DNA from: Mastigias papua
Lineage: Eukaryota; Cnidaria; Scyphozoa; Rhizostomeae; Mastigiidae
Length of the DNA stretch: 64,000 bases
Assembly: GCA_964019165.1 (NCBI GenBank)
Contig: OZ025287.1
Location: 2,904,017-2,968,016 of the forward strand
Direction: 5' to 3'
Shown here: positions 4,043-63,706 of the stretch, one piece after another
How the letters are laid out: each line of letters begins with the position of its first letter
How positions within the stretch are numbered: position 1 is the first letter of the stretch
Notes under the pieces: model-generated
Told to the model about the DNA's origin: nothing
Databases searched by the model: none
The model's input: only the letters and a program-made list of their open reading frames with translations
Made by a program: the position numbers and the translations under genes

Positions 4043-4465
4043 TTATAACAACCCATACGTTGTCTTGAATGCATCTTGGTTTTTGCTTTGGGATGCAGTG
4101 AGGTCGATTTGCTGACGCCAGTTGTCCGATTGGGGAACTGAGAATGCAACTAGTCCTGATGTGTATTCTATAACCAGCATTGGGCTCGAAGTATAGACAT
4201 ACACAGCCGGGACTCTAACACTTGTAGACAAGGACACTTTGGTGATAGCCGACAGTGGTATCTCTATTTCTTCATCACCACAACAAATAAAACGAAACCA
4301 TAGTTTCTCTTTTGTTAACACTAGTGCACCATTCCCCTCTCTCGTGCAACAAGATTGTTGAGTTGAAGCTCTCAAGTTGGCCCATCCAACATTTTTCATG
4401 ACGATGTCCGCTTCGTTAAACTTCTCTGCGACTTTTCTCTCCAGTTGACTACAGCAGCAACCCAT
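4043..4465 (-). CDS. Small acyl-anchored PH/GRAM-like protein, copy 1
   Basis: This single-exon gene encodes 140 aa. It starts MGCCCSQLERKVAEKF, a classic N-myristoylation Gly2 followed by three Cys suitable for palmitoylation, so the product probably sits on the inner face of a membrane (inference). Residues about 48-125 alternate strands in a PH/GRAM-like pattern: GALVLTKEKLWFRFI, then EIEIPLSAITKVSLS, then PMLVIEYTSGLVAFSV, ending in an amphipathic helix around DNWRQQI. I do not know a named family for it. A paralogue lies at 8185-8613 and a broken copy at 10500-10824, so this is a local tandem family. The chosen ATG has a good context (AAAATGGG), but an out-of-frame upstream ATG overlaps it (4449-4481). 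No intron is needed. Confidence 0.75.
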   Translation of the reverse strand: MGCCCSQLERKVAEKFNEADIVMKNVGWANLRASTQQSCCTREGNGALVLTKEKLWFRFICCGDEEIEIPLSAITKVSLSTSVRVPAVYVYTSSPMLVIEYTSGLVAFSVPQSDNWRQQIDLTASQSKNQDAFKTTYGLL

Positions 4466-4481
4466 TTTCTTCTCTCTTCAT
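4449..4481 (-). promoter_or_regulatory. Overlapping short upstream ORF
   Basis: An ATG 16 nt before the start of the small PH/GRAM-like gene opens a 10-codon frame (MKREENGLLL, then stop). It overlaps the true start in another frame. The same uORF, base for base, is present ahead of the paralogue at 8597-8629. If the transcript starts upstream of it, scanning ribosomes would be diverted and translation damped (inference). If transcription starts inside it, it has no effect. Confidence 0.4.
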
Positions 4482-8184: not shown

Positions 8185-8613
8185 TCATAACAATCCATAC
8201 GCCCGTGTCTCCTTGAATGCATCTTGGCTTTTGCTTTGGGATGCAGTTTCTTCGATCTGTTGACGCCAGTTGTCCGATTGGGGAACTGAGAATGCAACTA
8301 GTCCTGATGTGTATTCTATAACCAGCATTGGGCTCAAAGTAGAGACATAAACAACAGAGACTCTAACACTTGTAGACAAGGACACTTTGGTGATAGCCGA
8401 CAGTGGTATCTCTATTTCTTCATCACCACAACAAATAAAACGAAACCATAGTTTCTCTTTTGTTAACACTAGTGCACCATTCCCCTTTCTCTTGCAACAA
8501 GATTGTTGAGTTGAAGCTCTCAAGTTGGCCCATCCAACATTTTTCATGACGATATCCGCTTCGTCGAACCTCTCTGCGACTATTCTCTCCAGTTGACTAC
8601 AGCAGCAACCCAT
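8185..8613 (-). CDS. Small acyl-anchored PH/GRAM-like protein, copy 2
   Basis: A single-exon gene of 142 aa that is closely similar to the gene at 4043-4465 over its whole length. The MGCCCSQLER acylation start, the CCGDEEIEIPL strand and the MLVIEYTSGLVAFSVPQ segment are identical. Differences cluster near residues 11-18, in the loop after the conserved STSVRV segment, and at the C-terminus (KETRAYGLL against KTTYGLL). The frame is intact and the same overlapping uORF precedes the ATG, so this looks like a functional tandem duplicate. Membrane attachment and lipid or protein binding are inferred from the acylation motif and the predicted PH/GRAM-like fold. Confidence 0.75.
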   Translation of the reverse strand: MGCCCSQLERIVAERFDEADIVMKNVGWANLRASTQQSCCKRKGNGALVLTKEKLWFRFICCGDEEIEIPLSAITKVSLSTSVRVSVVYVSTLSPMLVIEYTSGLVAFSVPQSDNWRQQIEETASQSKSQDAFKETRAYGLL

Positions 8614-8629
8614 TTTCTTCTCTCTTCAT
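8597..8629 (-). promoter_or_regulatory. Overlapping short upstream ORF, second copy
   Basis: Same 10-codon frame and same overlap with the main ATG as at 4449-4481. Conservation may reflect only the recent duplication. Confidence 0.35.
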
Positions 8630-8689: not shown

Positions 8690-10499
8690 TGATTTAATAA
8701 GCAACACTTCAGGAAGACGAAGTAAAAGTTCTAGAGCTGAATTTGCAATGCTGCACGTAGTTTCACAGACGTAACGTTGGAAAATAAATACAATAGAGTG
8801 TGATCCACCTTAGGTCTTTAAACCTTAAGGTGGTTCATCAATGCTATAAAGGTGGTTTTATTACTAGTAAAAATGAATAGTTTGCTTTTACTACCCCATG
8901 ATGCATTCTCTAGGGCTGAAAAAAGCTAGTGTTCATGGGCCTCAGGAATGGGTTCATAGGCATGGGAGAGTGCAAAAAGATGAAGCGCTAGACATCTAGT
9001 TTCCGGCCTAGAGCTAACAGTCTGAGCTTTATACTATTCAAGTAATAGCCCACCTGTCCATGCACCCAGATCGGATAGTGAATATCAAAAAGGAAAATCC
9101 TGACCAATGGTGTAACGCATTACGGTCACCTTAGTCCAAGAACTATGAGCCCCTAACCAATCTTGTGGCCTATGAATCTTGGTAAACAGGGCTGTAAAAT
9201 AGGTGCGTGGAGCTCTCTTCTACTTTTAATGAAGGTCTAGGCTCCCTTCTCTTTTTTGAATGTGAATCGGTAAAAAGAATAGACTTCTAATATCGGTTAC
9301 AACTATTCTTCCCATTTTAACAATACACAATATTGTTCCATCAGTTTGCATTAAAGTCAGGGGCATGCTTTTAAAAACTTTCAAAAACTTGCCGTCAACG
9401 CTTTAAACTGGCACAGCCTTCACACAAAAAAGAGCCCCCCCACCCCCTCTTTGTACAAAACTCAGCTCTACACTACTGCTGGCATTTGCCAAACAACTAG
9501 ACATCTAGTTGGTACTCTTTGGCTATCTTTGAAGTTTATAACACCTCGACTATAGACCCGATAATACTTTCGTGCTTGCTGCTTACCTACCTACTTAATT
9601 ACTACAGACAGACGTTTTGTCTAAGGGGTGTGAAACCATCCGCACCTCACTGTAGGAATGGGCCTTTCAGAGTCTTCTTTGTAGAACATGGCTACAGGGG
9701 GGAGATGGCCTGGAGGCACTGCAACCTTAACTCTCGATAAATTCTGCTCGAGCATGGGTCTCCTAGGGTGCTTGGTGCTCGTTAAACCTCCATCACCTAA
9801 CACAATGGCGAGTTGTTTGCTATTGGGGTGTTCCTCTCCTCCAGCTATCATTAGAATACTATATATTTAATTGTAAGTGTCATGTATAGTGGGAACTCGC
9901 TGACTATAAGTCCTTTCCCACTATGGATGGCACGTAGTAAATTGATTGTTGTTTTATTTAATTCCGTTTTCAAATGAATAAAAAAACAGTCTTCCTAATA
10001 CTAGTATCGAAAACCCATACAGTTGATAGATGATGTTTTTGAGATGCTACCTTAGATAATAACAGCAAACCATATAATGCATATTAAAACTCGCAGATTT
10101 TCACAGTAATAGGATAGAGTCCTAGAATTAAGACTCTCGGTGACGTATTTTCAGGCCAGTTTTGGTACGTTCAATAACACTAAGACAAATAATGAACACA
10201 ATCGGATGACAGAGCACGTGACTATGCATGATGAAAAACCAGCCCAAGCTTACTTGTCAACTCTAACTGCGCAGTCATAACTATTGATTGCCCATTATCA
10301 AAGCCTCACTACCAAAAAGTACTCTTGAGTACCGAGTAATTGGAGGATGGGTGGAAATAAGCTGGGGGTTGGAAAATGTTCAGAAAAATAATAATCTGTG
10401 GAGTCTGGAAGACAGAGCACATGGACATTACATAGGAATTTCCAATAAAAAGCGAGGTAAAGAGAATTATAGTCACGGTGTAAGCAACTATTAGATGAA
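8690..10499. other. Intergenic, no supported gene
   Basis: Short frames occur on both strands around 9520-9870, but they overlap each other, match no family I know and lack splice context. A palindromic patch at 8810-8860 contains CCACCTTA and TAAGGTGGTTC, the same motif seen at 1133 and 11120. The rest is AT-rich unique DNA. Confidence 0.5.
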
Positions 10500-10824
10500 T
10501 TTCCGGTTGATCTCTAAATGAAAACATTATCTGGGAAGAAATAGCTAGATAGATTTGGTGACGGCAGTACTCTGCTTCGGGTACTGAAAATGTAACAATT
10601 CCTGGTGTATATTCTATAATAAGCATTGGACTCAAAGTAGAGAGAGAACAACCGGCAATTGCAGGTGTTGTTGACAAGTGCAATTTGTGTATTTGTGAAA
10701 GTGGGATGGTTAGTCCTTGATCATCACAGCACATTCACCGTCCTTTTGGAACACATTTTTCATGATGATATCTGTTGAACTTCCTGGCGACTTTTCTCTC
10801 CAATTGACTGTAACAGCAACTCAT
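10500..10824 (-). pseudogene. Broken third copy of the PH/GRAM-like gene
   Basis: The minus strand from 10824 reads MSCCYSQLERKVARKFN, matching the start of the two intact genes, but a frame shift follows before the IIMKNV-like segment. About 30 residues (the STQQSCC to LWFRF region) are then missing. Similarity resumes in another frame as CCDDQGLTIPLSQI and continues through SPMLIIEYTPGIVTFSVPE to about RHQIYLAIS. At least one frame shift and one internal deletion separate the halves. Gly2 is replaced by Ser, which would also remove the myristoylation site. It is either a pseudogene or a gene whose missing part lies elsewhere. Confidence 0.7.
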
Positions 10825-12705: not shown

Positions 12706-29193
<16,488 letters not shown>

Positions 29194-30036: not shown

Positions 30037-47654
<17,618 letters not shown>

Positions 47655-47939
47655 AACAATTAAGGTGATACCTTTTGCAGCATCAGTGTCAAATGTCTAC
47701 TTTAAACTAGAGCAAAAACAAATTTCACGCCACAACAAATTACCTAAACAGACAATGTGTAGCTTTCTTTGTTATTTCAAAATGTGGAAAAAACAATGAA
47801 CACATAATGAAGAAAAAATGGAATACTGCATCAGCTTCTGTAATAAGCCTAATAAAGAAATGGTAATCCATTAGAAATTTCCCCATGGAAATAGTCTACA
47901 CCTTTCTTTCACTAAACCTTTCACTGACTCTTCTGAAGT

Positions 47940-49589: not shown

Positions 49590-51489
49590 CAGCTTGCCAT
49601 TCCTCACAGAAATTCAACTTTCCCTTATGGGTGGCAAATAGGTGTCTGAAGTGCTAATCAACAGACTTTTGCACAAATGGGACTTAACCTAATGAAGGTG
49701 AATCTTCTACGCGAAATTGCCATAGGAGACATTACTTAAAATCATTGCAGCATTTTAAGTAAAACGCTTTTTATGGAAAGGAGGCAGTCTTCCTCGGTGA
49801 AGTGGTTAGAAAAGCAGGCACAAAGCGCAACACGTTACTTTGTATTAATAATTCTTCTCAAAATATAAACATATCTTGTGGACATCCATTAGCAAAAGTT
49901 TTAAACATGCAACAAAGTGGATAGCGATCAGCGAGAGCAAGGAGACAAATTGTGTATCTGAAGATTTAGTGAGAATAACTTCCCGATACAATATGTCCTG
50001 AGAAGATTCTAATTTCTAAGAAATGCACACTTATATATCCTACCAGTTGGGTGTCATGTTAGCTCATATGTATATAATTAAGCATCCACACTGAAAATTG
50101 AGCAAAAACAATTCTTAAAACGAATCTTCTGAACTCAAATACACAACATGAAATGGTCCTGGAAGTTTGGTTTTGTGTACTAGTAAACAATACAGATACA
50201 CTAATGGAGGCTGCCTATTGTCTGGCCAGTTTTTTCTACAATGGATCTTGAGTCTCTAAGTACCAACAGGTGTCTGAACAGGCTTCTGTCTCTACCACTT
50301 CGTCGTAACAAGAATCTAAGAGGAAATGACTGATAATTCACTTTTACATGCTAGATAAAAGTAACTTCACTGCTAAGTATGCAAATCTAAAGCCTGGTTC
50401 ACACTTGTGAAGCAAGAGCTGAACCAAGCAAAGTAAGCATGCGCAGAAGGCACCTGGACGTGAAAAAGTCAGCACACATGATCTTTTCTCCCTCTCCATT
50501 TAGCCGCTATCTTTCTTCCTTTGTTGGTGGCTTTGCCATAGGCTTCTGGCCCTTTCCCCAACACAGTAAGCGGAAAAAATAAATTGTTATGAATATGAAA
50601 TCATGTGATCGCTTTCAACCCGTTTTGAATGACAATAAATGAGCGAAACTTGTGGAGATGTGGGGAGTGCAGTACTCGCCAATGACCAAAAAGGTGGATT
50701 GTCGGGCAATTTTATTTGGCTGCTTGCATACTAGTCAGATAATTCTGAAGAATATGATTTCTGTCACTCATTTATTGCTGCTTCTTGAACCAAAAGTTTA
50801 TGACAAATAAATAGACTTAAGCTTCTCATAGTTTTGTCCCCTTCTTACTAGCTCACGACATGCTCTTTCATCAAGCAATCCAGGCCGTTACGTCAGGCAT
50901 ATATGATTCAAGCATCCCTAATCCTTCTTTAGTGACTAATGTCGGGAAAGGTCTTGGAACCTATAACAAAGCCCAAACAAATGAAGAAAGAAAGGATGGG
51001 TAGACAGAGAGTTTGTTAATGTTAGCTTTGAAACAAGTTGTAGGACTCGGGGAAAGAAATGGAAGGCTAGGCGTTCCAAAGTTAACAAGTTCTTGGAATG
51101 AAAGATGATTTGTGGGAAAGAGTTCATGGATTAGCTAGTATAACTAATGACAACTATGAGGCTTCTCTTCTGCGACACTGCAACAGGTAGTCGAAATTAG
51201 ACTGACCCATCAACTATGTGTGTAAAGATTGGCACAAAAAGCCAGCTCAGAGTGTAAATTTATAGAAATTAGATTAGTTGCTTTAATATCAAACCAACAA
51301 AAATCTAGGAGGGAAAAGTGCAAAGGATCACAAACATTTACAAACAATGACATGAATCCGAGTTCAAAAGCACATTCTGCTTACCTTGCTCTAACTTTAA
51401 TTTTCCAAAATCTAAAATGGTGAGGATTCGTCATTTCCTAAAAGTTCTGGAGCGAAGATTGGCCTGGGAGCCATAGGAATGAACGCTCT

Positions 51490-51705
51490 TTGGAAACCTG
51501 ATAACGAGAAGAACATGAAATATCAATGACTCGTTTTGATGTAATTGTGTTAATGCTGTACAGCAGCGAGGCATAGAAAGAGCAATGAAATCATTAACTC
51601 GCAATTGGTCATTGCCAGGATTATCTTCCTCACAAAAGCCAGTGATTATCCGCATAGTAATCAAATGTTTCACTGGCTGAGATCTCTGATCAGGTATATA
51701 TTCTC
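51490..51705 (-). pseudogene. Exon-like open segment, family unknown
   Basis: The minus strand reads MRIITGFCEEDNPGNDQL, then DFIALSMPRCCTALTQLHQN, within an unbroken frame that runs from an acceptor-like TAG at about 51712. A gene on the same strand as the segment at 49240 is possible but no junction could be proved. Confidence 0.25.
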
Positions 51706-52007
51706 CCAACCTAGTTAACTAATTATCATTCAAAATGGGCCTAAATTCAGCTTTGGAGCAAATGTGTTGCAAGAATCCTGCAAGAGTATTGGCCAATTTA
51801 ATTTGGAGAATGTAGGCCTGATCAGAGCTCTCAATCAATCAAACATTTGGCAGCTAAACTATGGTTATGTACGAGCAGAGGATAGGCAATCTGAATTTGC
51901 TCTTGATGAGAAAGCAACCCATAGCTAAATCTAGTGTACAGTGACAACCGACTTCTCCAGCAAGCTGGTTTTGTATAGTTATAGACAGTAAGTGTGTAGC
52001 GGTAAAA

Positions 52008-52821
52008 CAGGCCCGTCGGAACCGGGGGGGCTGGGGGGGCTTCAGCCCCCCCAATATTTTGCAACTATTTGCTCTTTAAATTTTCGAGAAAACATTGCAA
52101 GACCATACTATAAATTCGCAAAAATATTAACCAATTCAGTTACCAGTTATCCCTTTCAATCATTTATTGCGTGTTCAAAGAACCAATGTATACTTGATCA
52201 GGAACGGTAAACAGCATGAGCGAAGAAAGTGAAATCTTGAAAACTGAATATGTTATGCGAAGATCCTGGGAGGGCGTCAGGGTCTGACTTTTATGTTCCA
52301 TCAACCTTAAAACACTTCATTATCGATAGTATTGTTTGATAACCTGATTATTTGGTAAGCAGATTTTTGGACAATTTTCGAACAGAGATTTGTGTATTAA
52401 AGGTAATGTAGCACACAAAAGCGCACAAGCATAGGTGATTGAAAAAGAGTGTTAAGAGGATCGTTAAATTTTGTTTTGGCAGTGTTTATGATTTGTTAAG
52501 TTGATTGCTGGCGTGCATTGCACGGAGACAGCAGGAAAGTTTTGCTGTCAATGACTGGAAAGTATTTCGTTAGCTTTTTCTGCCACAGGTAATGTTAGTA
52601 GGTGACTGCAAATACATAGATTCCAGCCAATTTACAACTTCCATTTCAAAAATTGTCTTAATTCTGTAAATAGTAATTCATCCATTAAAAATGGCAATTT
52701 GTATAGCCAGGTTGCTTTCCAGCAATCTAAAGGGCGTGGCCGAACAAAAATTCTCCCGGAGCCCAGTGCAGTTTGCTTTATTCACAGCCCCCCCAATATC
52801 AATTTCGTTCCGACGGGCCTG
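52008..52821. mobile_element. 0.8 kb hAT-type element
   Basis: The ends CAGGCCCGTCGGAAC and GTTCCGACGGGCCTG are inverted copies. Each is followed inward by a G7/C7 run (GGGGGGGCT and GCCCCCCC). GGTAAAAC repeats at both flanks, with one base shared with the element on the left, consistent with a 7-8 bp duplication. No transposase frame is left. Confidence 0.75.
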
Positions 52822-52905
52822 GGTAAAACCATTTAACTCTTCAAGAACGTATTCACGCAACCTTTCCATCAAGACTTGCTTTGATTAATGCATCATTTGT
52901 GATAT

Positions 52906-53080
52906 CAATAGCAATCACCAACCAATGTCCAGTCAATACAATCAATAATCAATGTTCAATCAATAGCAATCAATAATCAATGTTCAATCAATAGCAATCA
53001 CTAATCAATGTTCAATCAATAGCAATCACTGATCAATGTTCAATCAATTGCAATCACTAATCAATGCTCAATTCAATGAG
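52906..53080. repeat. 28-bp tandem repeat, about 5 units
   Basis: The unit is AATCAATGTTCAATCAATAG followed by CAATCACT. Copies differ by one or two bases. Non-coding. Confidence 0.85.
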
Positions 53081-54096
53081 CTTTGTAGGAAACTGGTGTC
53101 ACTCAAATTGTAAGTGAAATAATGGGCACGGTCACGACATTTCTAAAGGGCTTCTCCCAATACCCCAAATTTTCAGCGAAATGCTCAATGGTAAGTTTTT
53201 CTTATACCTTGAAATGAAAGCAAAGAGCCTGGTTTTACCAGAAGTTCCAGGTGGATTTGCCAAGAAAGCATAGAGCATAGGTTAAAAGTAGAAGTAATGT
53301 ATTGCTGTTCTATGTTTTAGGTTAATCTGTGTTGTATGTGGTGTCGCTTTACCATTGATGTTGTCTGTTAAAATCACATATTTGTTTTAAGTTCTGTCGT
53401 TAGCTAACTCCCGTGTAGTGCCAGTATCACCCTTTCCGGGCAATTTATTTGTCTCCGTCAACGTATATTGTGTATTGACGTAACGAGTGTTGTTTAGTAC
53501 TTAGCTTTATATACTGTGTACACTGGTATTTGATTCAGTTAGTTTGATTTGGTTATTAGTTCAGTTGAGTTCTTGACGTTGCCACAATAGTAGCTTTTCT
53601 CTGTGTCGCTTCAAACTTAGGCCCAGGTCTATGGCCTAGGCTTGAGCATTGAAGATGAGAGACCAATCGCCGGCCACCGAAGAGAGACCGTTTATGTTAC
53701 ATAGATCTATTGTATCCAATGTCCCACTAATATTTTGCCATTCAATTGTTGTATTTCTTCAATAGCTTCAGCGGACAAGAGTGCAGAGCTTACGGTAATA
53801 GAAATTCACAAGGCAGACATTAAAGGGCTTGTGCAAGTGGCCTATTGGAAAATCCTCCATGATCACACTAATTTCCAATAAGACACGTTCTGTCTGATCT
53901 TTTTCTAGAAAATTTTGCAGGTGAAGAACTCACTAATATTTAAACTGTTAATGTTTTTAAGACCATTTCTGAATTTTCAAAGCCACTACTAGTGGTCAAG
54001 GCCATTTTTTCAGGTCCCATGGGAACGCTCAGACAAAACCTTGGAAATTTCCGTCAGATATTGAACGTACGAAGAACAATCAGATATCAACTTGGA

Positions 54097-57000
54097 TTAC
54101 TTGCCTGGATAGCCACTGCTTGGAGCAGGTAACATAGCGGCTGAAGGTTGGTCGGAGAACCTACTTGGTCCCATCATCTCTGGCCCTTGATCCTGAGGAT
54201 ATGGCTGTTCAGGTGCTTGGTCCTGCATTGGAATCATACCGCTAAATCCCTCTGGTGCACCAAAGACCTGTCTCTTTACTTTGACTGGCTCTTTGGGAAT
54301 CATATTCTTAACATCAGTTGATGCCATGGCATGTCCTGGCCAAGCTACCGTTGTGAAGCCTGGATGTGTGACTGGGTGGCCATATGGTACTGCATAGCCT
54401 GAATTACCAAGATTTGCGCTGAATTCGTTGCCACCGAAGTGTCGCTTGTTTGCAGTTACCTATTACATAACGAAATAAAGAATATATGATACAGAATTTG
54501 GTATTGCTTACTTGATAGGACCTATTTTTATTAGACAGTCTTTGAACAGTAACATGGCATATTACTAATTAAGTGTCAAATATAAAAGTAACGGTTAATC
54601 TCAAATACGATTCCCTACATTGGGGAGTAGCTGTTAGAAAGGACACTTATCCTGGGCTGTCGCGGCATAGCGAAGTAAGGCGGGCAGTTCCTTCCCTCCC
54701 CACCTTTAACTCTCCAGTATTCCCACCAGGTACCCATTTGCTGTTGGGTGGACAGTAAGCAAGCAACCCAGCTATGTTCCAAAGGTTTGCTTTGACACAT
54801 CGATGTTCCACAGAGCAGTCAAATGCTCTAACCACTGGGCCACTCCCCACAGCATGAAATGCAAGAAGTGATTAAATGATGAAAATTAAAGACTCAATCT
54901 GACAGATCCCTACCTCTTTCATATTTTCAGGGAGTGGTGAGTTCTCTTTCTTTGAGGGCATGAAAGACTTTTTAACGGCTGATACTGCACCGCCATCATT
55001 CATTGCCGGGCTTTGGTTTGCATCACCATTGACAGCACTAACACCGCCCATACCTCCGAAGCCATAGCCCAGACGGTAGTTATCTCCACTTGCATATCCA
55101 TAACCAACATGAATCGTCTGCTTCTTTTCGTTCTTATGGACTGGCCCTGGGATCTGGTCTCGTTGAGTTGATTTCAAATCTTTAGAAGCTTTCTTCTCAT
55201 CTTTTTCGTTTGATTTCCCAGCTTTCTTTGCGTCAGAGGATTCTTCTTTTGCACCCTTTGGCACTTTTGACTTATACCATGGCCATCCCCATCCGTACAT
55301 TCCAAGGCCGGCTCCTGGGTAACCGTGCCAGAAGGGCCATCCATAACCACCATGGTATCCAATTGGAACACAGAATCGCTTCGATTTACTCTTGGTCTTG
55401 CCGCTTGCATCACCCTCATCTGGGACAATGTCCCTGCAATGAAGGCCAACACCATGGCCACCTCCATAGCCAAGAGATCCATAACCTCCACGAAGACCAT
55501 GATGACCACCACGTCCATGTGATCCCCATCCATGGTGTCCGTGACCACCCCACCAGTCAGCCCACCATGGGTATGATGCCCATGGACCATATCCGACAAA
55601 TGGGTAGACCACACCTTGCCTGCTAGAAGCTGAATCTTCCTTATCAGCCTTTGGGATACCACCTTTACCATAAAGGATTCCACGTCCATTACCAAATATT
55701 GGAAGAACTCTGTAATAATGACCATACAGTCCACCTCCTACATCACCGCCAAATGAGCCATGTCCAACAAAGTCTCCATATCCACCCCATGGCCAACTTC
55801 CCCATCCATACCATCCACCAAGAGGACGCCCAATTCTTCCAAAGAGACAACGTCGTGTTGCCTTCTTATTGCTTTTATGTATTACATCTTTGTATAAGCC
55901 ACCGATACAGCCTCCAAGTGGAGAATAGCCCACTATACCATGATGTCCAAATCCTCGATGACCGAGGCCGATTCCGTAGCTGCCTGGCCAGTATCCAACA
56001 CCGGGTCCTATACCAAGACCATGGCCGCGTCCAATGCCATAGCCATAACCAGCACCATAGCCGTGGCCTCCTGCACCAAGAGGGAAGCCCCAGCCACCAT
56101 AGTATGGATTGATTGGAACTAGATGGTACTTTTTGTCAGCTCCTGATGGAACCTCGTCTTTACCATATCCATGTCCATGACCTCCATGTCCCTCGTGAGG
56201 GTGTTCAAGGCCCTCAAGGTGTTGGAAGTTATGGTAGTTGTGGTCCCAATCTCCCCAATCATCTCCAAAATCATCATATCCAAAAGTCCATGGCCCTTCG
56301 AATCAAATAAAAAGGGAAAATCAATCCACTCGCAATCTCATCAAATATAAGTCTACATTAAGATAACCACACACTGCACAGTATGGCCTTTCAGTATTAG
56401 TATCATTCAGTGCTTTACAGACTGGGTTCCAGATTATTGCCCTTAACTGTTGCTCTTAAATAACCGGTTTTAGATAATTGCCCTTCAACTATCAATGTTA
56501 AAGTGACAACTACTCTTGCAAATTTTCCCCAATTCTATAGTAAAATATCTGGTCAAGTGGTTCCAAGTGATAATAGCCATCTGTATATTACTATATACTG
56601 CATATAACTCTATATAAACAAATGTCATGTCATTGCTAAGTGCTCAATTCATGACAGAGAAAATTTGATGAAAAGCCTTATGAATTACTCAAAAACAATG
56701 TAAAGCAACTTAACTCTCAGAATGCCTAGCCTAGTTCTCCCGATTTTTTGGAGAATCTGTGAAGTAACATTGTATTTGAGTTATAACTTAGGTGTCAAGT
56801 CTTAGCATCCATAAAATTACATAAACTTTAAGCGCAAACATTGGCCCGTTTGGCGGTGCCACAATTGATCTCATTTTCTCATTTATTCTTATCTACGTGG
56901 TAGAAAGTGTACGATCTCAAAAGATAAGAAAGAAATTGGCTGATGAACATCTTGGCAATCGATCACTTATTTCCAATGAAAAGACGAGGTATCACCAGGG

Positions 57001-60000
57001 ACGCCGCCGTGGCCATGAGTGAAGACAAGTCTCATGAAGGTGGTGAGCATCTACCTCTAAGGTGGAAGTCATGTTCATGGTGTCCTCCGTGATGATCGCC
57101 ATGATGACTACCGTGGTCAACAAAATGGTACCCATCTCCATGGTGACCTCCGTAGTGGCCACCAACACCATAGCCACCATAGCCATGACCACCAATGCCA
57201 TAGCCACCGTAGCCATGGCCACCAATACCATAACCACCAAAACCATGGTGACCACCACCATAGCCACCAAAACCATGGTGACCAATTCCCCCATGTAAGC
57301 ATCGTTTGTTGGTGGTAGCTGTTTCTGGATCATTGCAATCTGGAACCTATGAAAGATCAAACAGATACCACAATATGTCCAAACCACACAATTGAAAGCT
57401 TACGATGCAACACTGTAACTGTGAAACCAAAGATAGGAAATAGAAAGAATTTAAGGATGATTGCCACGACGAGCCACATGGTAGATGGTTAGAAAAAAAT
57501 AGCCATTTGTTGTTATTACATTATTTCATCGACATATCCATGACTTACACAAGCTAAGATAAATACTAGGTTGACATTATCAGTTGACATAAATCAGAAC
57601 GTTTCGGGACTAGCTTGTCCCATCCTCAGCTGTAAGAGGGGAAATCCAAAACATAGATATATGAACACATGTTAAACAATGGATAATGGGTAAACAGGCG
57701 AGAATTATCCATTGTTTAACATGTGTTCATATATCTATGTTTTGGATTTCCCCTCTTACAGCTGAGGATGGGACAAGCTAGTCCCGAAACGTTCTGATTT
57801 ATGTCAACTGATAATGTCAACCTAGTATTTATCTTAGCTTGTGTAAGTCATGGATATGTCGATGAAATAATGTAATAACAACAAATGGCTATTTTTTTCT
57901 AACCATCTACCATGTGGCTCGTCGTGGCAATCATCCTTAAATTCATCATTAAACTGCGCTTTCCAACTGACATCTCAATTTCAAGGAAATAGAAAGAGTG
58001 CAAATGCTACGAGTCCCGCTTCTATCATGTCTCGCATTAAAACCAGAAGCGTTTACAGTGAGTATGTGTATATCAAATGATAATGTAGAGAGCAAGATAA
58101 AATAAAACGAAACAAACTATGCTTCCTATAGCTAATAAACAAACAGCGTGTAAGGGAATCAAAAACATCAATACAAGACGACAAAAATAACCAATTCAAG
58201 AAAAAACAACCCTGTAAGGAGTTGTCAATGATCATAATACTCACTTCATCTCGGAAATGTCCGTGTGCGTGCTTCATTCCGGTGTGTCCGTATTCCCATC
58301 CGCCACCACCGTGATGCACATGATGTGGTGATCCCCAATGGTCATGGCCCCAGTGAACATGTCCATCACCGACTTTCCACCAGTTTTTAACACCACCCCC
58401 TTGAGACTCGTCCATAACTTCACTTGGCTTTGCTGCAGGCGCGGCTTGTTGATTACCCGCTGCTAATTGAACATTGCCCCAATTTAGGGTTTGGGGTTGC
58501 TGACCTGGTTTTGGGACGGCAGTTGCTTGGGCTTGAGCACCCTGAGCATCTTTTGTAGCCTCCTTTGCAGCATCTTTTGTAGCCTCCTTTGCAGCATCTT
58601 TTGTAGCCTCCTTCGCAGCATCTTTTGCAGCGTCTTTATCTGCTTTCTGTTCCTTCGCAGCACCCTGCGCTTTCTTGCTTCCCTTCTTAGCTTTACCTTT
58701 CTTTCCATTACTATCGGTCTTAATCTCCTCTTTCTTATAACCACCATGGCCACCATATCCGCCTAAGATAAACAGCAGCAACAAACCTGTCACCGTAATG
58801 TAACATACTTAACTTCCATAAAATTGATGCCACAGTTCCCTCGTGGCACTGTTTGGCTGAATGCTAGAGAAGAGTACTAATTTTCTCACCTAAATATTTT
58901 CTAAAAAATAAATTAATACCTCACTACTTCCAGTAAACATTCGGTTTAAAAGAACTATTCAAGTACGCTAGCAGTAGAGAGAGTGATAGAGTTTTAAATT
59001 ATTTACTTTTCGTGCAGAAGGACTTCTTACTGCATGAAAAGGCAGTTTTAAGTATATTCTATTATTGTACCTTGGTACTATGGACAAAATTGCTGGTCAG
59101 AACACTTTGCAGCCACTCATAGTACTATGAGCCTTATTTCGACAAAGGTAAATAACACAGCGTGTTCAACTCATGAAAATCATCCCTTTGGTTGCTAGAT
59201 TGCTAATAGTAATAACACTCCCATCATCCTTTGTGTTAGAGGAATCTTCTTCCAAACTGTGCCCACAATAGATGAGGTAAAAAAAACAATCATCATGAGA
59301 CTAGGTACGTTCTACTTCGTTTTGATTTTCTTCAGTCTCATCTTTTCCTCACTTTTTCGTTTCGATTCGTTTTCAGTTCCTCATTTTTATTTTATTTTTA
59401 GCTTTTCAGCTTCATTTCGTCTATAGATTTCACTTTCAGCATACTTTTCAGTTTTTTATTTTCACGTGTGCATATGGATAAATCAATAAACTGGGTATAA
59501 CATGGTCGAGAGGTTACAATTGTAAGTTTGTCCCAATTAAAAATTCATACCACCGCCATATCCTCCCAAGTGGTGCCCACCATGTCCTGCGTGTTCGCCT
59601 CCTTCGTTGTGTCCCCATTCGTGATGGTACCCTGCATGATGTCCGTGGTGTCCGTGTTCATGGCCCTCATGTCCATGTTCGTGTCCGCCACCATGACCGC
59701 CATATCCACCGTATCCACCATGACCACCATGACCGCCCTCATGGCCTCCATGATGACCACCCTCATGGTCATCGTACTCTTCATAAAATTCGTAACTGCG
59801 TTTAGGAGGAAAATATTAATAGCAGCCGATATTACGTGAGGCAACATAAATGCAATATATGCACTGATTTAGTTGTAGTTTAAATATATAATCGAGATTG
59901 GTCAAATCGATTGCTCCTCACAACTCAGATATTCGCTATTTGGACCCAATTTTCCATTACCCTTGCTTAGGTAACCCATAAAACACTGCCCAAATAAATT

Positions 60001-63000
60001 TAGATTGTTGACCCAAATAAATTTAGATTTCCCATAAGAGCTCAAATCATCGAATATCAACTGTAGTAAAAGATATGAAGCGAAGATTGAGAAAAATCAC
60101 TTGATTCCTATGTCTCGTTCACACTGCTGCATTTATATACAAAAACAGAGCGAAAATATCCGTTTTTGTGAAACCGTTCACACTACTCCGCACAAAAACG
60201 CATAAAACCGGTTTTCAAAAACGCTCTTCAAAGTGGATATTTACAAATGCCCCGTTCATGCTGCTCCGGTTTTGTACAAAAACGGAGCAAACAATATACG
60301 TTTTTGTGAAACCACTCACACTACTCCGCACAAAAACTGAGGTTTTCGAAAACGCTCTGGATCAGTATGAACGCGCAAAAACGAACGAAAACAAAAACGC
60401 GGTAAGCTACCTCCCAAAAACGTAGCAGTGTGAACGCATCGAAGCTACAAAAACGGTTATTTTTCCTCCGTTTTTGTGAGCAGTGTGAATGCAAAAAAGC
60501 ATATATTTTTATCTCCGTTTTTGTACAAAAATGGAGCAGTATGATTGGGTGACAGATATCTACAAAAACGAATAAGTTTGAAAACGAAGCAGTGTGAACG
60601 CAGTATTAGTCCCATTTGTTAAATACCCCATTTAACACTCCTAACATTTCTACTATTCAACATTTCTACTATTCAACATTTTTATTATTTTATATCTATT
60701 AGATACCGATTTCAAACATTGGCTCTTTCCTTTGATCAATGGAGCTATCTCCATTGCGCTTTGGCAGCAATAAATCTCAAGTACCTTGAAGAGGATTTTG
60801 GCAGAGTGTAATAATACCATCTTTTCCAATTCTACTATCCTAGTATTTATTCCAGCCTCCTTTATTTTCGCCATTAGTGCTGTTATAAAAGAGTTTCGTA
60901 CCGTAGGCCGCTAAAATCGAAGGGGGTATCACTCGTAGAGAAATTTACGAGATTTTTGTGATGTTTTGTAACTTTTTTGCGATTTCTGTGATTGTTTGTG
61001 ACTTTTAATGTGATTGTTGTTATTCCTTGTGAATATGTTGCGTTTTTTGTGCTTGATTGTTGTGATTTTTGTAATTTTTGTGACTTTATGACTTTTCACA
61101 AAGTGTACGAGATTTTTCCGAGTGATATGGTCCTCAGCCAAAGTGTAGTTTATCTACAGCTCATCAAAGCCTACTTAAAGGAAAACTTAGGCGACGACGA
61201 CATAAATATATAAATCAAACAAAAAAACGGCATAAATGGCTTCCAAACCACTATGGAATTCTGAGTTGATATAAAGCTCAACTAATAAACTTGGTAGGAT
61301 ATCTCTAGATGGTGCAGTCACCTATCTGACAACTTGGCAGGCGCAGAGAATATGGTGTGCTGGAAAAGTGCTTCTCCTACTCAAGGTATATGAAAACTGA
61401 ACGGGACCTTATCTGGACCATGAACCTCTCTTGAACGAAGTACCCATATACTACTAGAATATTCAATGACATCAGAGACTGGCATGATTGAATCCTCCTA
61501 CCAACCGGTCTAAACACTATCAGCCAATAGGAGATGCTTGTAGGTACGAAAGCGCGAAACAAATAAACTCACCCATGATCGTGATTATCATGACCATGTT
61601 CATGGTGTCCGTGCCCACCATGTTCACCGTGTCCATGACCACCATAGCCACCATACCCGCCATGGTGTCCACCATAGCCGCCATATCCGCCACCATGGCC
61701 GCCGTAGCCACCATAGCCGCCACCATGGCCACCCCATCCGTAGTCACGCTTACCAGCATCGTCTCCAGACTCCTTAGCTGCTTTGGCTTCACTGACAAGA
61801 GCGCTATTGGTTTCTTCTGGTTTAGTATCTAACACATTCTCCTTCTTAGCGGGACTCTCTTCTCCCTCAGTAGCAACTGCCGAAACGTCCGGAGAGTCAG
61901 GAACGAATTCTTTCTTTGCAGAGTCGTCCTGCAGTACCAAAAATAAATATCCAGGTATAGATCTAATCGTGCATCATTGTTACTTAAAACAAATATAGCT
62001 TCCAACAGAATCTGCCATTTCTTTACCAAGCAACTTGCCATACGTCAATTAGAGATAAAAAATACTCAATAGCCTTAGGGTAACGTTATGTAGGAAATTG
62101 GAGTTCACACAAGCCTAATACCGTTTGAATATCAAAATTTAAATTTTATATGGTCTCCCAAGCATCTGCCCTAGCAGTAGCTCATTCTTGTTAAACTCTG
62201 ATGTCAATACCTCAAACTATTATGAGTAACTGAATAAGATGAGAGGAAGAACTTTATTAAAGTTAGGAGCACGTGCATGAAAGCGTGATAAAGTATCTTG
62301 TAAGTCATTAATAGCGATAGGGAGGTATGTAATTTGGAGGAGAAATCAAAAGGATATGTGGAAGGGAACGCAAAGTGATTAATCACTACAAACCGTGATT
62401 ACTGGCAAGGGATAAGCGATTAGTTATAACTGATTATCGCACGTTTTAGGCACTTTTCCTGATAAGAATTAAAAATGTAGTAGACACATTCAAATAACCC
62501 CTGTCAGAAAGATAAAACTGAATATGAACAGAAATATATACATTTTCGGTTACTGGGGCCGAAACTAATATAAAATAACTACAGATATACTGGAAAATGC
62601 CCGGGATACATACCTGCTCTGAGTCATCGTCTTTTTCGAGATCTAGAATGAATTTACAGACGATAGTTGAGCCAATACTGAGATTCAGATAGGATTAACC
62701 ATGAAGTTTTCAAATGGGAGCATCAAGAGATAGAAGGTCCAATGTTTCTCAAGAGCCCAAACCACAAAAAGGGAATGAACGAGGCATTCTTTGCCATAAA
62801 CGCACATGCAAGAGAACTGATCGTATACGTGAAATTTATGCATGTACCAGTGTTAACGAATAAAAGCGTTCTAAAAGATCATGCAATAGTGATGAACCAC
62901 AGTTTGAATCAGAGGGGCCTTTATTTGCGTATTGCGTTCATCATGCGTTAACGAGTTTCAAGCTTCATGTCAAAAACCAGAGTGAATCTAGTGGAATTTA

Positions 63001-63706
63001 AGCAGTAAATAGGTGCTCAAAAGTTAACGAAATAGCAAAGAGAATGGCTTAATTATGATCTTATAAAGTGGAAATCAAAAACTGCATCCACGAAAGAAAG
63101 ATTTTGCATAAAGCACATTATATCTTGAAACTTGAAGCGAAGGAATGCTTCACAAATTGATTGAAACGAATTTCAAACAAGAACTTTTAAGTACAAACAT
63201 GTTTGCTGTCTTAAACAGTGATGGGGCATTCAACAAAGTAATGAGTTTCAGGTGAAAGGAAATCCAAAATGATTCACAGTACTTCCAGAAATCACCCAAA
63301 ATCTTGAAAAAATGAAAGCTATTCGTTTGATAATAATCTCAAATTGGAAAAGAAGATACCACAATGAACAGAATAACATTTCGCAGTGTTATGACACGTA
63401 ACTTTATTACGATTGACGTTACGGGTAGAGCTTTCGTTTGAGATAAGATAGAACAATCGTATTATACAAAGGCGAAGCCGTTTCGAAATTCTCTTGTAAT
63501 GGTTAAATGACTAAGTGAGAGATCTTACCATTCGAATCGCCATCAGCATCGCTCTCTTTATTGTCGATAATCTCTGCTGCTTTGCTCGAATCGACAATCG
63601 AAGTTTTCATGTGTTCTAAGTCGACAAGCTCGACTGGCATAGACAGTACAAAGTCATAGGCCGTGAGGCCTAAGACGACAAGAAGAAGAACAGAACGCAA
63701 TCTCAT
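54097..63706 (-). CDS. Secreted Gly/His/Trp-rich modular protein (8 exons, about 1,120 aa)
   Basis: Not a family I recognise. Exons in transcript order: 63706-63529, 62642-62614, 61928-61573, 59795-59551, 58762-58245, 57346-57055, 56295-54914, 54459-54097; 3,363 nt, phases agree and the frame closes at TAA. Exon 1 gives a signal peptide (RSVLLLVVLGL) and then acidic sequence. Exon 3 is an acidic linker, a KR site, then GGYGGHGGG repeats. Exon 4 is a His-rich block (HEHGHEGHEHGHHGHH). Exon 5 is a Lys/Ala helix with a repeated KDAAKEAT unit, followed by a His/Trp segment. Exon 6 is GGHGYGGYGIG repeats. Exon 7 is long, Gly/Trp/Tyr-rich (WYGWGSWPWGG) with basic patches. Exon 8 is Pro/Gln/Met-rich after a KVKRQ cleavage-type site. 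The only six Cys are in exons 6-7. It is probably an extracellular structural or metal-binding protein (inference). Gly codons make other frames look open, but these are shadows. Confidence 0.85.
54580..54848 (-). mobile_element. tRNA-derived SINE, near full length
   Basis: The minus strand begins GGGGAGTGGCCCAGTGGTTA, an A-box-like tRNA head. A degenerate B-box region (GGAACATCGATGTG) follows, then a core with TGGGTACCTGGTGGGAATAC, and a tail ending AACCGTTACTTTTATA. The core and tail match the truncated copy at 25455-25675. It lies in the last intron of the Gly/His-rich gene, in the same orientation. Confidence 0.75.
57447..57944. repeat. Near-perfect 241-bp inverted repeat (Penelope-type terminal repeat pair)
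   Basis: The arms 57447-57687 and 57704-57944 are reverse complements with very few differences, separated by 16 bp. Each arm contains a hammerhead-like core: CTGAGGA, one base, a 5-bp hairpin (GGGAC / GTCCC) and GAAACG (57600-57629 minus; 57762-57791 plus). This is the layout of paired pseudo-LTRs of a Penelope-like element without the coding part. It lies in the intron between exons 5 and 6 of the Gly/His-rich gene. Confidence 0.8.
58546..58635 (-). repeat. 24-bp coding tandem repeat
   Basis: The 24-bp unit encodes KDAAKEAT, repeated about three times with partial copies at each side, in exon 5 of the Gly/His-rich gene. Unit length keeps the frame, and copies are almost identical at the DNA level, so copy number may vary between individuals. 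Confidence 0.8.
60110..60608. mobile_element. About 500-bp MITE built of repeated AAAAACG words
   Basis: The left end CGTTCACACTGCTGC mirrors the right end GCAGTGTGAACGCAG. Inside, CACACTACTCCG followed by CACAAAAAC and CCGTTTTTGT-type words repeat many times on both strands. Open frames across it are due to this repetition. It lies in the intron between exons 3 and 4 of the Gly/His-rich gene. Confidence 0.65.
60945..61110 (+). repeat. Degenerate TTTTTGTGA-type repeat
   Basis: Short words such as GATTTTTGTGA, GATTGTTGTG and GACTTTTAATGTGA recur over about 165 bp. The minus strand gives a spurious Ser/Lys/Gln-rich frame. Intron of the Gly/His-rich gene. Confidence 0.55.

What the first reader, a model, noticed from the sequence alone, without database searches (positions are those of the whole stretch)
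54097..63706. Unrecognised 1,120-aa secreted Gly/His/Trp-rich modular protein
Eight exons join in phase into one protein with a signal peptide, acidic linker, GGYGGHGG arrays, an extreme His-rich block, a Lys/Ala helical repeat, a Trp/Gly segment and a Pro/Met/Gln tail. Each exon carries its own composition, as if built by adding modules. His clusters suggest metal-dependent cross-linking, and Tyr/Trp/Gly suggest a structural fibre or matrix. I know no family with this order of modules.
Basis: partly seen in the sequence, partly recalled or inferred. Interest (0 to 1): 0.8.

Follow-up and report, generated by a model that had tools for sequence, protein, structure and literature searches.

The report
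Undescribed cnidarian secreted structural protein family
This is a real gene for a large secreted glycine-, histidine- and tryptophan-rich protein, one of an undescribed protein family found in Hydra, Clytia, a soft coral and unnamed relatives, probably used to build a tough extracellular structure such as part of the stinging capsule.

Summary
The gene is real and on the minus strand. The eight proposed exons join in phase, but the 3' end was wrong: exon 8 ends at a GC-type donor and a ninth exon lies at 51412-51497, giving 1146 aa.

It is not without family. Three searches gave 52 relatives; the five that carry an organism name are all cnidarian: Hydra vulgaris (three records), Clytia hemisphaerica and Xenia. 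No Pfam, NCBIfam or PDB match was found, and no open paper on the family in ten searches.

The modules are not exons: none of the 7 internal exons is phase-symmetric. Gly/His/aromatic modules are separated by charged linkers that often start [KR]xx[IV]P and end in basic residues. All six cysteines form three pairs, each bracketing a dibasic site. AlphaFold models one such loop in a relative as a confident hairpin; nearly all the rest has low confidence.

Best reading: a secreted precursor with a large propeptide ending in Lys-Arg that becomes an insoluble structural material, most likely in nematocysts, with cuticle or mesoglea as the main rival. Location, cleavage and assembly are inferred, not shown.

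The parts
63529..63706 (-). Exon 1: start codon, signal peptide, start of acidic propeptide (aa 1-59)
   Evidence: no tblastn hit of its own
62614..62642 (-). Exon 2 (29 nt), acidic propeptide (aa 60-69)
   Evidence: AG/GT sites and phase only
61573..61928 (-). Exon 3: end of propeptide with Lys-Arg at aa 129-130, then GGYGGHGG repeats (aa 70-187)
59551..59795 (-). Exon 4: His/Gly block with YEFYEE and HHEWGHNEGG motifs resembling relatives (aa 188-269)
   Evidence: P0038 match
58245..58762 (-). Exon 5: end of M1, Lys/Ala linker L1 (24-nt tandem repeat at 58545-58631), NWWKVGD His/Trp module M2, first residues of L2 (aa 270-442)
   Evidence: P0001 hit at 58266-58412
57055..57346 (-). Exon 6: most of linker L2 and Gly/His repeats of module M3 (aa 443-539)
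54914..56295 (-). Exon 7: Trp/Gly modules, rest of M3 to M8, linkers L3-L7 and most of L8 (aa 540-1000)
   Evidence: hit by 48 of 52 relatives in tblastn
54105..54459 (-). Exon 8 (corrected 3' end, GC donor): end of L8, M9, L9 and most of M10 (aa 1001-1118)
   Evidence: 34 of 52 relatives hit it
51412..51497 (-).
   Evidence: P0013 residues 503-530 match at 86%, the only relative of 52 to hit it; sequence; model
51498..54104 (-).
61746..63640 (-). Acidic propeptide aa 23-130 (across exons 1-3), 29.6% Asp+Glu, ends in Lys-Arg
   Evidence: start placed by eye
57299..57337 (-). Cys-bracketed dibasic loop 1, C446-C458 around KR456
55847..55909 (-). Cys-bracketed dibasic loop 2, C669-C689 around RR687
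55370..55438 (-). Cys-bracketed dibasic loop 3, C826-C848 around KR845, the CxD...RFC(V)P loop
   Evidence: hairpin modelled in relative P0018
54974..55120 (-). Signature module M8, QTIHVGYGYASGDNYRLGYGFGGMGGV, the most conserved block of the family
54310..54441 (-). Module M9 with GHPVTHPGFTTVAWPGHA

Best explanation
A cnidarian gene, with no second copy found in its genome, for a secreted, mostly disordered, multi-module structural precursor. A signal peptide and a large acidic propeptide ending in Lys-Arg are removed in the secretory pathway. The mature chain is a string of about ten Gly/His/aromatic modules separated by charged linkers and pinned by small disulfide hairpins. It packs and cross-links (disulfides, aromatic and His contacts, perhaps metal) into an insoluble material. 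The most likely site is the nematocyst (wall, shaft or spines). Supported by computation: gene model, family, linker pattern, cysteine pattern, low predicted order. Inferred: propeptide cleavage, disulfides, assembly, cross-linking chemistry, nematocyst location.
For: Nine-exon gene and 1146-aa protein. 52 relatives; the 5 with an organism name are Cnidaria, one octocoral and four hydrozoan records. Two family probes found only the window gene in its own 346.8-Mb genome. [KR]xx[IV]P occurs 10 times against 0.33 in shuffles (0 of 300), and 163 against 7.9 over 32 proteins of 350 aa or more. All 6 Cys bracket 3 of 6 dibasic sites; 0 of 20,000 random placements did so. [quoted passage not shown] Spinalin, a Gly/His-rich protein, sits in Hydra nematocyst spines (passages of PMC2687796 and PMC9205923). 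Hydra and Xenia have the gene although, to my knowledge, they lack a perisarc or horny axis.
Against: No expression or proteomic evidence for this protein was found. No minicollagen cysteine-rich domain. Hydra spinalin and Nematostella v1g243188 could not be compared. Dibasic excess in the window protein alone is moderate (6 against 2.29; 9 of 300 shuffles reach it; KR alone 411 of 20,000). In the commonest loop Lys is replaced in 6 of 35 (QR 4, TR 2), and in the model the Arg lies at the start of a strand rather than in an open loop, so cleavage there is doubtful. Low model confidence can also come from shallow alignments.
Confidence: 0.5

Rival explanations
1. The same kind of structural precursor, but used in an epithelial cuticle, perisarc/periderm, glycocalyx, egg or cyst coat, or mesoglea rather than in nematocysts.
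For: Gly-rich low-complexity secreted proteins are typical of tough extracellular materials in many animals (PMC4944945 passages). The octocoral relative P0010 is named 'fibroin heavy chain-like' in the database. No minicollagen-type domain is present.
Against: The gene occurs in Hydra and Xenia, which to my knowledge have no perisarc or horny axis; the KR-ended propeptide is described as typical of nematocyst proteins.
Confidence: 0.35
2. A polyprotein whose linkers are cut to release separate short peptides (signalling, antimicrobial or adhesive), not one material protein.
For: Dibasic sites in excess over the family (229 against 69.7 over 32 proteins); three modules of the window protein would start with Gln after a basic residue; octocoral relatives carry many KR sites.
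Against: Modules are 34-148 aa long, most of them Gly-rich and of differing sequence; several linker ends are single basic residues or KK; disulfides, if formed, would hold three of the cut ends together.
Confidence: 0.1
3. The gene model is wrong: two or more genes, or low-complexity reading frames joined by chance.
For: No transcripts of this species were available; exon 2 is 29 nt; exons 1, 2, 3, 4 and 6 have no composition-corrected tblastn hit.
Against: Relatives such as P0002, P0003 and P0005 are single proteins from signal peptide to C-terminus in the same order; all 9 exons are in phase; P0038 matches exon 4.
Confidence: 0.04

Closest known systems
Uncharacterised cnidarian proteins: Hydra vulgaris LOC100198893 and LOC101239391, Clytia A0A7M5WIY2, Xenia 'fibroin heavy chain-like'
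   Same: Same signature KQT[IV]H[VLI]GYGYASGDNYRLG, linkers and KR sites; homologous by search
   Different: Xenia and its two nearest rows lack the Trp/His modules and repeat CGGCG units; Hydra and Clytia type sequences include a second, shorter paralogue group that was not found in this genome
Hydra spinalin / nb054
   Same: Gly- and His-rich, cnidarian, in nematocysts; one locus with long transcripts of about 3 kb (PMC2687796, section 9 read)
   Different: Sequence not available here; by my recall spinalin begins with a Gly/His block and ends acidic, the reverse order; nb054 was called putatively Hydra-restricted in 2009 (passage)
Cnidoin (silk-like nematocyst elastomer)
   Same: Signal peptide, unusually large propeptide ending in Lys-Arg, long Gly-rich centre (PMC4321713 passages)
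   Different: Gly/Gln repeats flanked by minicollagen cysteine-rich domains, which are absent here
Nematostella v1g243188 'fibroin-like factor'
   Same: A structural factor of the nematocyst thread; knock-down thins shaft filaments and disturbs barbs without stopping thread operation (PMC9205923, section 10 read)
   Different: Sequence not available; homology untested
Annelid jaw His/Gly proteins (Nvjp-1 and similar, recalled)
   Same: Very high Gly and His
   Different: No annelid among the named hits; lead from memory only, not tested

Membership tests
Unnamed cnidarian GYASGDNYRLG family | Signature block KQT[IV]H[VLI]GYGYASGDNYRLG | tested here: met
   Window aa 931-949; most columns invariant or nearly so in alignments A1-A3 of 9, 7 and 33 rows
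Unnamed cnidarian GYASGDNYRLG family | Significant sequence similarity over the C-terminal half | tested here: met
   E 1e-140 to 9e-8 for the 12 hits; 44 hits with profile A2, where only the 7990 best candidates were scored
Unnamed cnidarian GYASGDNYRLG family | CxD...RFC(V)P loop | tested here: met
   Present in 35 of 53 proteins incl. the window; not in Xenia P0010 or its nearest rows P0011, P0012
Minicollagen / Cnidoin (nematocyst CRD proteins) | Cysteine-rich domain of the (CXXX)4-CC pattern (pattern from PMC2687796) | tested here: not met
   Six Cys at 446, 458, 669, 689, 826, 848; no CXXXC
Minicollagen / Cnidoin (nematocyst CRD proteins) | Large propeptide ending in Lys-Arg | tested here: met
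   Acidic aa 23-130 ending KR; its cleavage is not testable here
Spinalin | Sequence similarity to Hydra spinalin | not testable with these tools
   Spinalin papers not held and no record named spinalin among the hits
Spinalin | Location in nematocyst spines | not testable with these tools
   No expression data
Silk-like structural proteins (SLSP) | Signal peptide and Gly-rich low-complexity tracts | tested here: met
   By composition and hydropathy, not by the SilkSlider program; a descriptive class, not a homology family
Any Pfam / NCBIfam / PDB family | Profile or sequence match | tested here: not met
   0 Pfam families for the 8-exon window protein and 5 relatives, 0 NCBIfam for 5 relatives, 0 PDB for profile A1 of 9 relatives

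The most novel reading that the evidence does not exclude
The family uses a 'cut but hold' maturation: a convertase nicks the precursor at basic sites that lie within disulfide-closed hairpins, so the modules separate in backbone yet stay chained, turning a soluble precursor into a flexible disulfide-linked fibre. This would be a pan-cnidarian way of making an insoluble material, with the octocorals having multiplied the unit.
Probability: 0.2. Interest if true: 0.75.

Novelty: new variant of a known kind. Interest (0 to 1): 0.5.

Why it matters
A protein family kept in both hydrozoans and an octocoral, with a block of about 25 nearly invariant residues in an otherwise variable Gly/His/Trp chain, is a good candidate for a basic cnidarian building material that I did not find described in the open papers searched. 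If it is a nematocyst component it adds to the known structural parts of the stinging organelle and is testable in Hydra or Clytia. If it is cuticle or mesoglea it is a new candidate for those. The disulfide-bracketed basic sites offer a specific maturation hypothesis.

Tried and rejected
Annelid jaw protein was my first idea; dropped when the named hits proved cnidarian. Paper searches for histidine-rich coral skeletal matrix, Nereis jaw protein and Clytia perisarc found no paper. Perisarc with histidine and glycine gave one unrelated paper (listing). Mixed periderm/fibroin terms gave 17 papers, of which I read passages of PMC4944945, PMC9205923 and PMC4321713. Gorgonin/antipathin gave 8, none opened (listing). 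Spinalin terms gave 9, of which I read passages of PMC10014300, PMC9205923, PMC2687796 and PMC9935875. Searches for the Hydra gene ids and two motif strings found no paper; nb054/v1g243188 terms gave 5, two of them irrelevant. Structure of P0001 with 9 sequences: mean pLDDT 36, of no use as a fold, so no fold search was run. A family member within 100 kb beyond the 5' end or about 90 kb beyond the 3' end of the gene: none. Relatives of P0038 and of the short paralogue P0033 in the own genome: only the window gene matched, 2 of 2 places each; probes P0001, P0012 and P0017 did not complete. The organism was not identified. The bacterial promoter scan is irrelevant to an animal gene.

My module and linker borders were drawn by eye, so the composition contrast is partly circular; the shuffles are free of that choice. 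Of the 10 [KR]xx[IV]P sites of the window, 6 are at linker starts, 1 lies inside linker L7 and 3 (aa 75, 846, 1122) are elsewhere; 3 of the 9 linkers (L1, L4, L8) do not start with the motif. The bracketing permutation is not striking in several Cys-rich relatives (P0047 1407, P0045 1102, P0040 893, P0032 622 of 2000). In that count 18 of 53 have no bracketed site. P0014 is the window gene over again and is counted as a separate row.
Full report
What is there. The close relative P0013 goes on after the window's exon 8, and its residues 503-530 match 51415-51498, 2.6 kb further downstream, at 86%. Exon 8 of the window ends in CAG|GCAAGT, a GC-type donor, and the stop codon at 54097 lies just inside the intron. 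A cag acceptor precedes GTTTCCAAAGAGCG at 51497. The corrected gene has 9 exons and 1146 aa and ends ...SGYPGFQRAFIPMAPRPIFAPELLGNDESSPF. P0013 aligns to window aa 673-1146 at 66%. P0013 is the only one of 52 relatives to hit exon 9.

How well each exon is supported. With composition correction, tblastn of the 52 relatives hits exon 7 (48), exon 8 (34), exon 5 (2) and exon 9 (1), and nothing else in the window. Without correction exons 3, 4 and 6 are hit by 33, 37 and 35, along with 586 matches at other places or on the other strand, mainly low-complexity by the look of the first ones. P0038 matches exon 4 at 69% in a separate search. Exons 1 and 2 have no hit.

Relatives. The first search used aa 540-1120 of the 8-exon protein and gave 12 proteins; the second, on aa 926-1070, gave the same 12. 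A profile of seven C-terminal segments gave 44, of which 40 were new; only the 7990 candidates sharing most words were scored. Names with an organism are on 5 of the 52: Clytia, Hydra (three records) and Xenia; Clytia and Xenia were checked in the taxonomy. P0033 bears only a transcript id, which I recall as Clytia style. P0014 is almost certainly the same gene in another assembly, read on into intron 7, with one substitution. Pfam gave nothing for the window protein or 5 relatives, NCBIfam nothing for 5 relatives, and the PDB nothing for profile A1.

Family shape. A tree of 41 rows of the C-terminal core puts the window with P0014 (100/99). These fall with P0013, P0015, P0016 and P0017, with weak support (87/42). 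Three other groups stand apart: an 11-row group with the Hydra and Clytia long forms (97/94), a 16-row group of shorter forms with Hydra paralogues (100/99), and a 5-row group with Xenia (99/95); the program warned of long branches for P0052, P0038, P0010 and P0024. The window species is therefore probably a medusozoan outside Hydrozoa, such as a scyphozoan; this is inference. In its own genome (346.8 Mb, 172 contigs, window at C27:2904017-2968016), the probes P0038 and P0033 found only this gene.

Modules are not exons. All 7 internal exons are asymmetric in phase, which argues against growth by simple exon shuffling or exon duplication. The repeating plan is at protein level. Gly/His/aromatic modules alternate with charged, aromatic-poor linkers (borders by eye). 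Linkers tend to start [KR]xx[IV]P (6 of 9): 10 sites in the window against 0.33 in shuffles, 0 of 300 reaching it; over 32 proteins of 350 aa or more, 163 against 7.9. They end in KR, RR, KK or a single basic residue. The Lys/Ala repeat of exon 5 is in the longest linker (24-nt tandem repeat at 58545-58631). Linkers are less conserved than modules in the four relatives compared: identity per residue 0.22 vs 0.43 (P0001), 0.19 vs 0.44 (P0002), 0.17 vs 0.36 (P0003) and 0.19 vs 0.26 (P0005).

Cysteines. All six Cys of the window protein form three pairs, each around a dibasic site; 0 of 20,000 random placements did so. A bracketed site is present in 35 of 53 proteins. The 18 without it are 5 with no Cys, 4 with one Cys and 9 with two or more. 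Counted separately, the CxD...RFC(V)P loop is in 35 of 53, not the same 35; the residue before Arg is Lys in 29, Gln in 4 and Thr in 2. AlphaFold gives low confidence to most of the chain (mean pLDDT 36 for P0001; 52 for P0018 with 33 sequences). The exception in P0018 is this loop: residues 21-40 average 82-85 and form a hairpin with strands 22-29 and 36-43. By that register C25 would face C40, as a disulfide needs; coordinates were not inspected. The Arg then lies near the start of the second strand, so cutting there is less sure than cutting at the end of the propeptide.

Function. The precursor has a signal-like N-terminus and a 108-aa acidic propeptide ending in Lys-Arg. [quoted passage not shown] Spinalin is a Gly/His-rich protein of Hydra nematocyst spines, and its locus also makes transcripts of about 3 kb (PMC2687796, passages and section 9). 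In Nematostella a fibroin-like factor supports shaft and barbs (PMC9205923, passages and section 10). These make nematocyst use the likeliest single location, but none of them tests this protein. The distribution argument (Hydra and Xenia have no perisarc or horny axis) rests on my own knowledge. I put a structural role at about 0.85, nematocyst location at about 0.5, and cuticle, coat or mesoglea at about 0.35.

Novelty. Members have been in databases as uncharacterised proteins. I found no description in ten searches of an open-licence library, which misses most subscription journals. I file it as a new variant of a known kind: silk-like secreted structural precursors of Cnidaria, with its own signature block, linker plan and cysteine loops.

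Noticed in passing
window 57447-57687 and 57704-57944 (intron 5): A perfect 241-nt inverted repeat with a 16-nt spacer: a very recent fold-back element or an assembly artefact.
   Followed up: partly
window 60119-60600 (intron 3): Inverted-repeat-rich stretch with several copies of an AAAAACGGAGCAGTGTGAACGC-like unit, resembling a MITE.
   Followed up: partly
window 4046-4477, 8188-8625, 10312-10734, minus strand: By eye, two near-identical reading frames of about 145 aa with MGCCCSQLER and a third, partial, more distant copy: a tandem-duplicated small gene. The copy tested (8188-8625) has no Pfam match.
   Followed up: partly
window 47250-47696, minus strand: SAMD1-type winged-helix frame, closest in the PDB to KAT6A: perhaps the start of a KAT6-like acetyltransferase gene.
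   Followed up: partly
window 15516-15836, minus strand: GIY-YIG-like frame, just under Pfam's cut-off (22.5 against 22.6 bits), perhaps a Penelope-like retroelement remnant.
   Followed up: no
window 31468-31721: A CAC trinucleotide array of about 85 copies; its frames read as long poly-His, poly-Thr, poly-Pro or poly-Gly, and it draws false matches from His-rich queries.
   Followed up: partly
P0001 and P0038; P0005 and P0037; P0029 and P0034: Pairs of family members list a longest contig of the same length, suggesting paralogues on one contig in several species, unlike the single gene found here.
   Followed up: no
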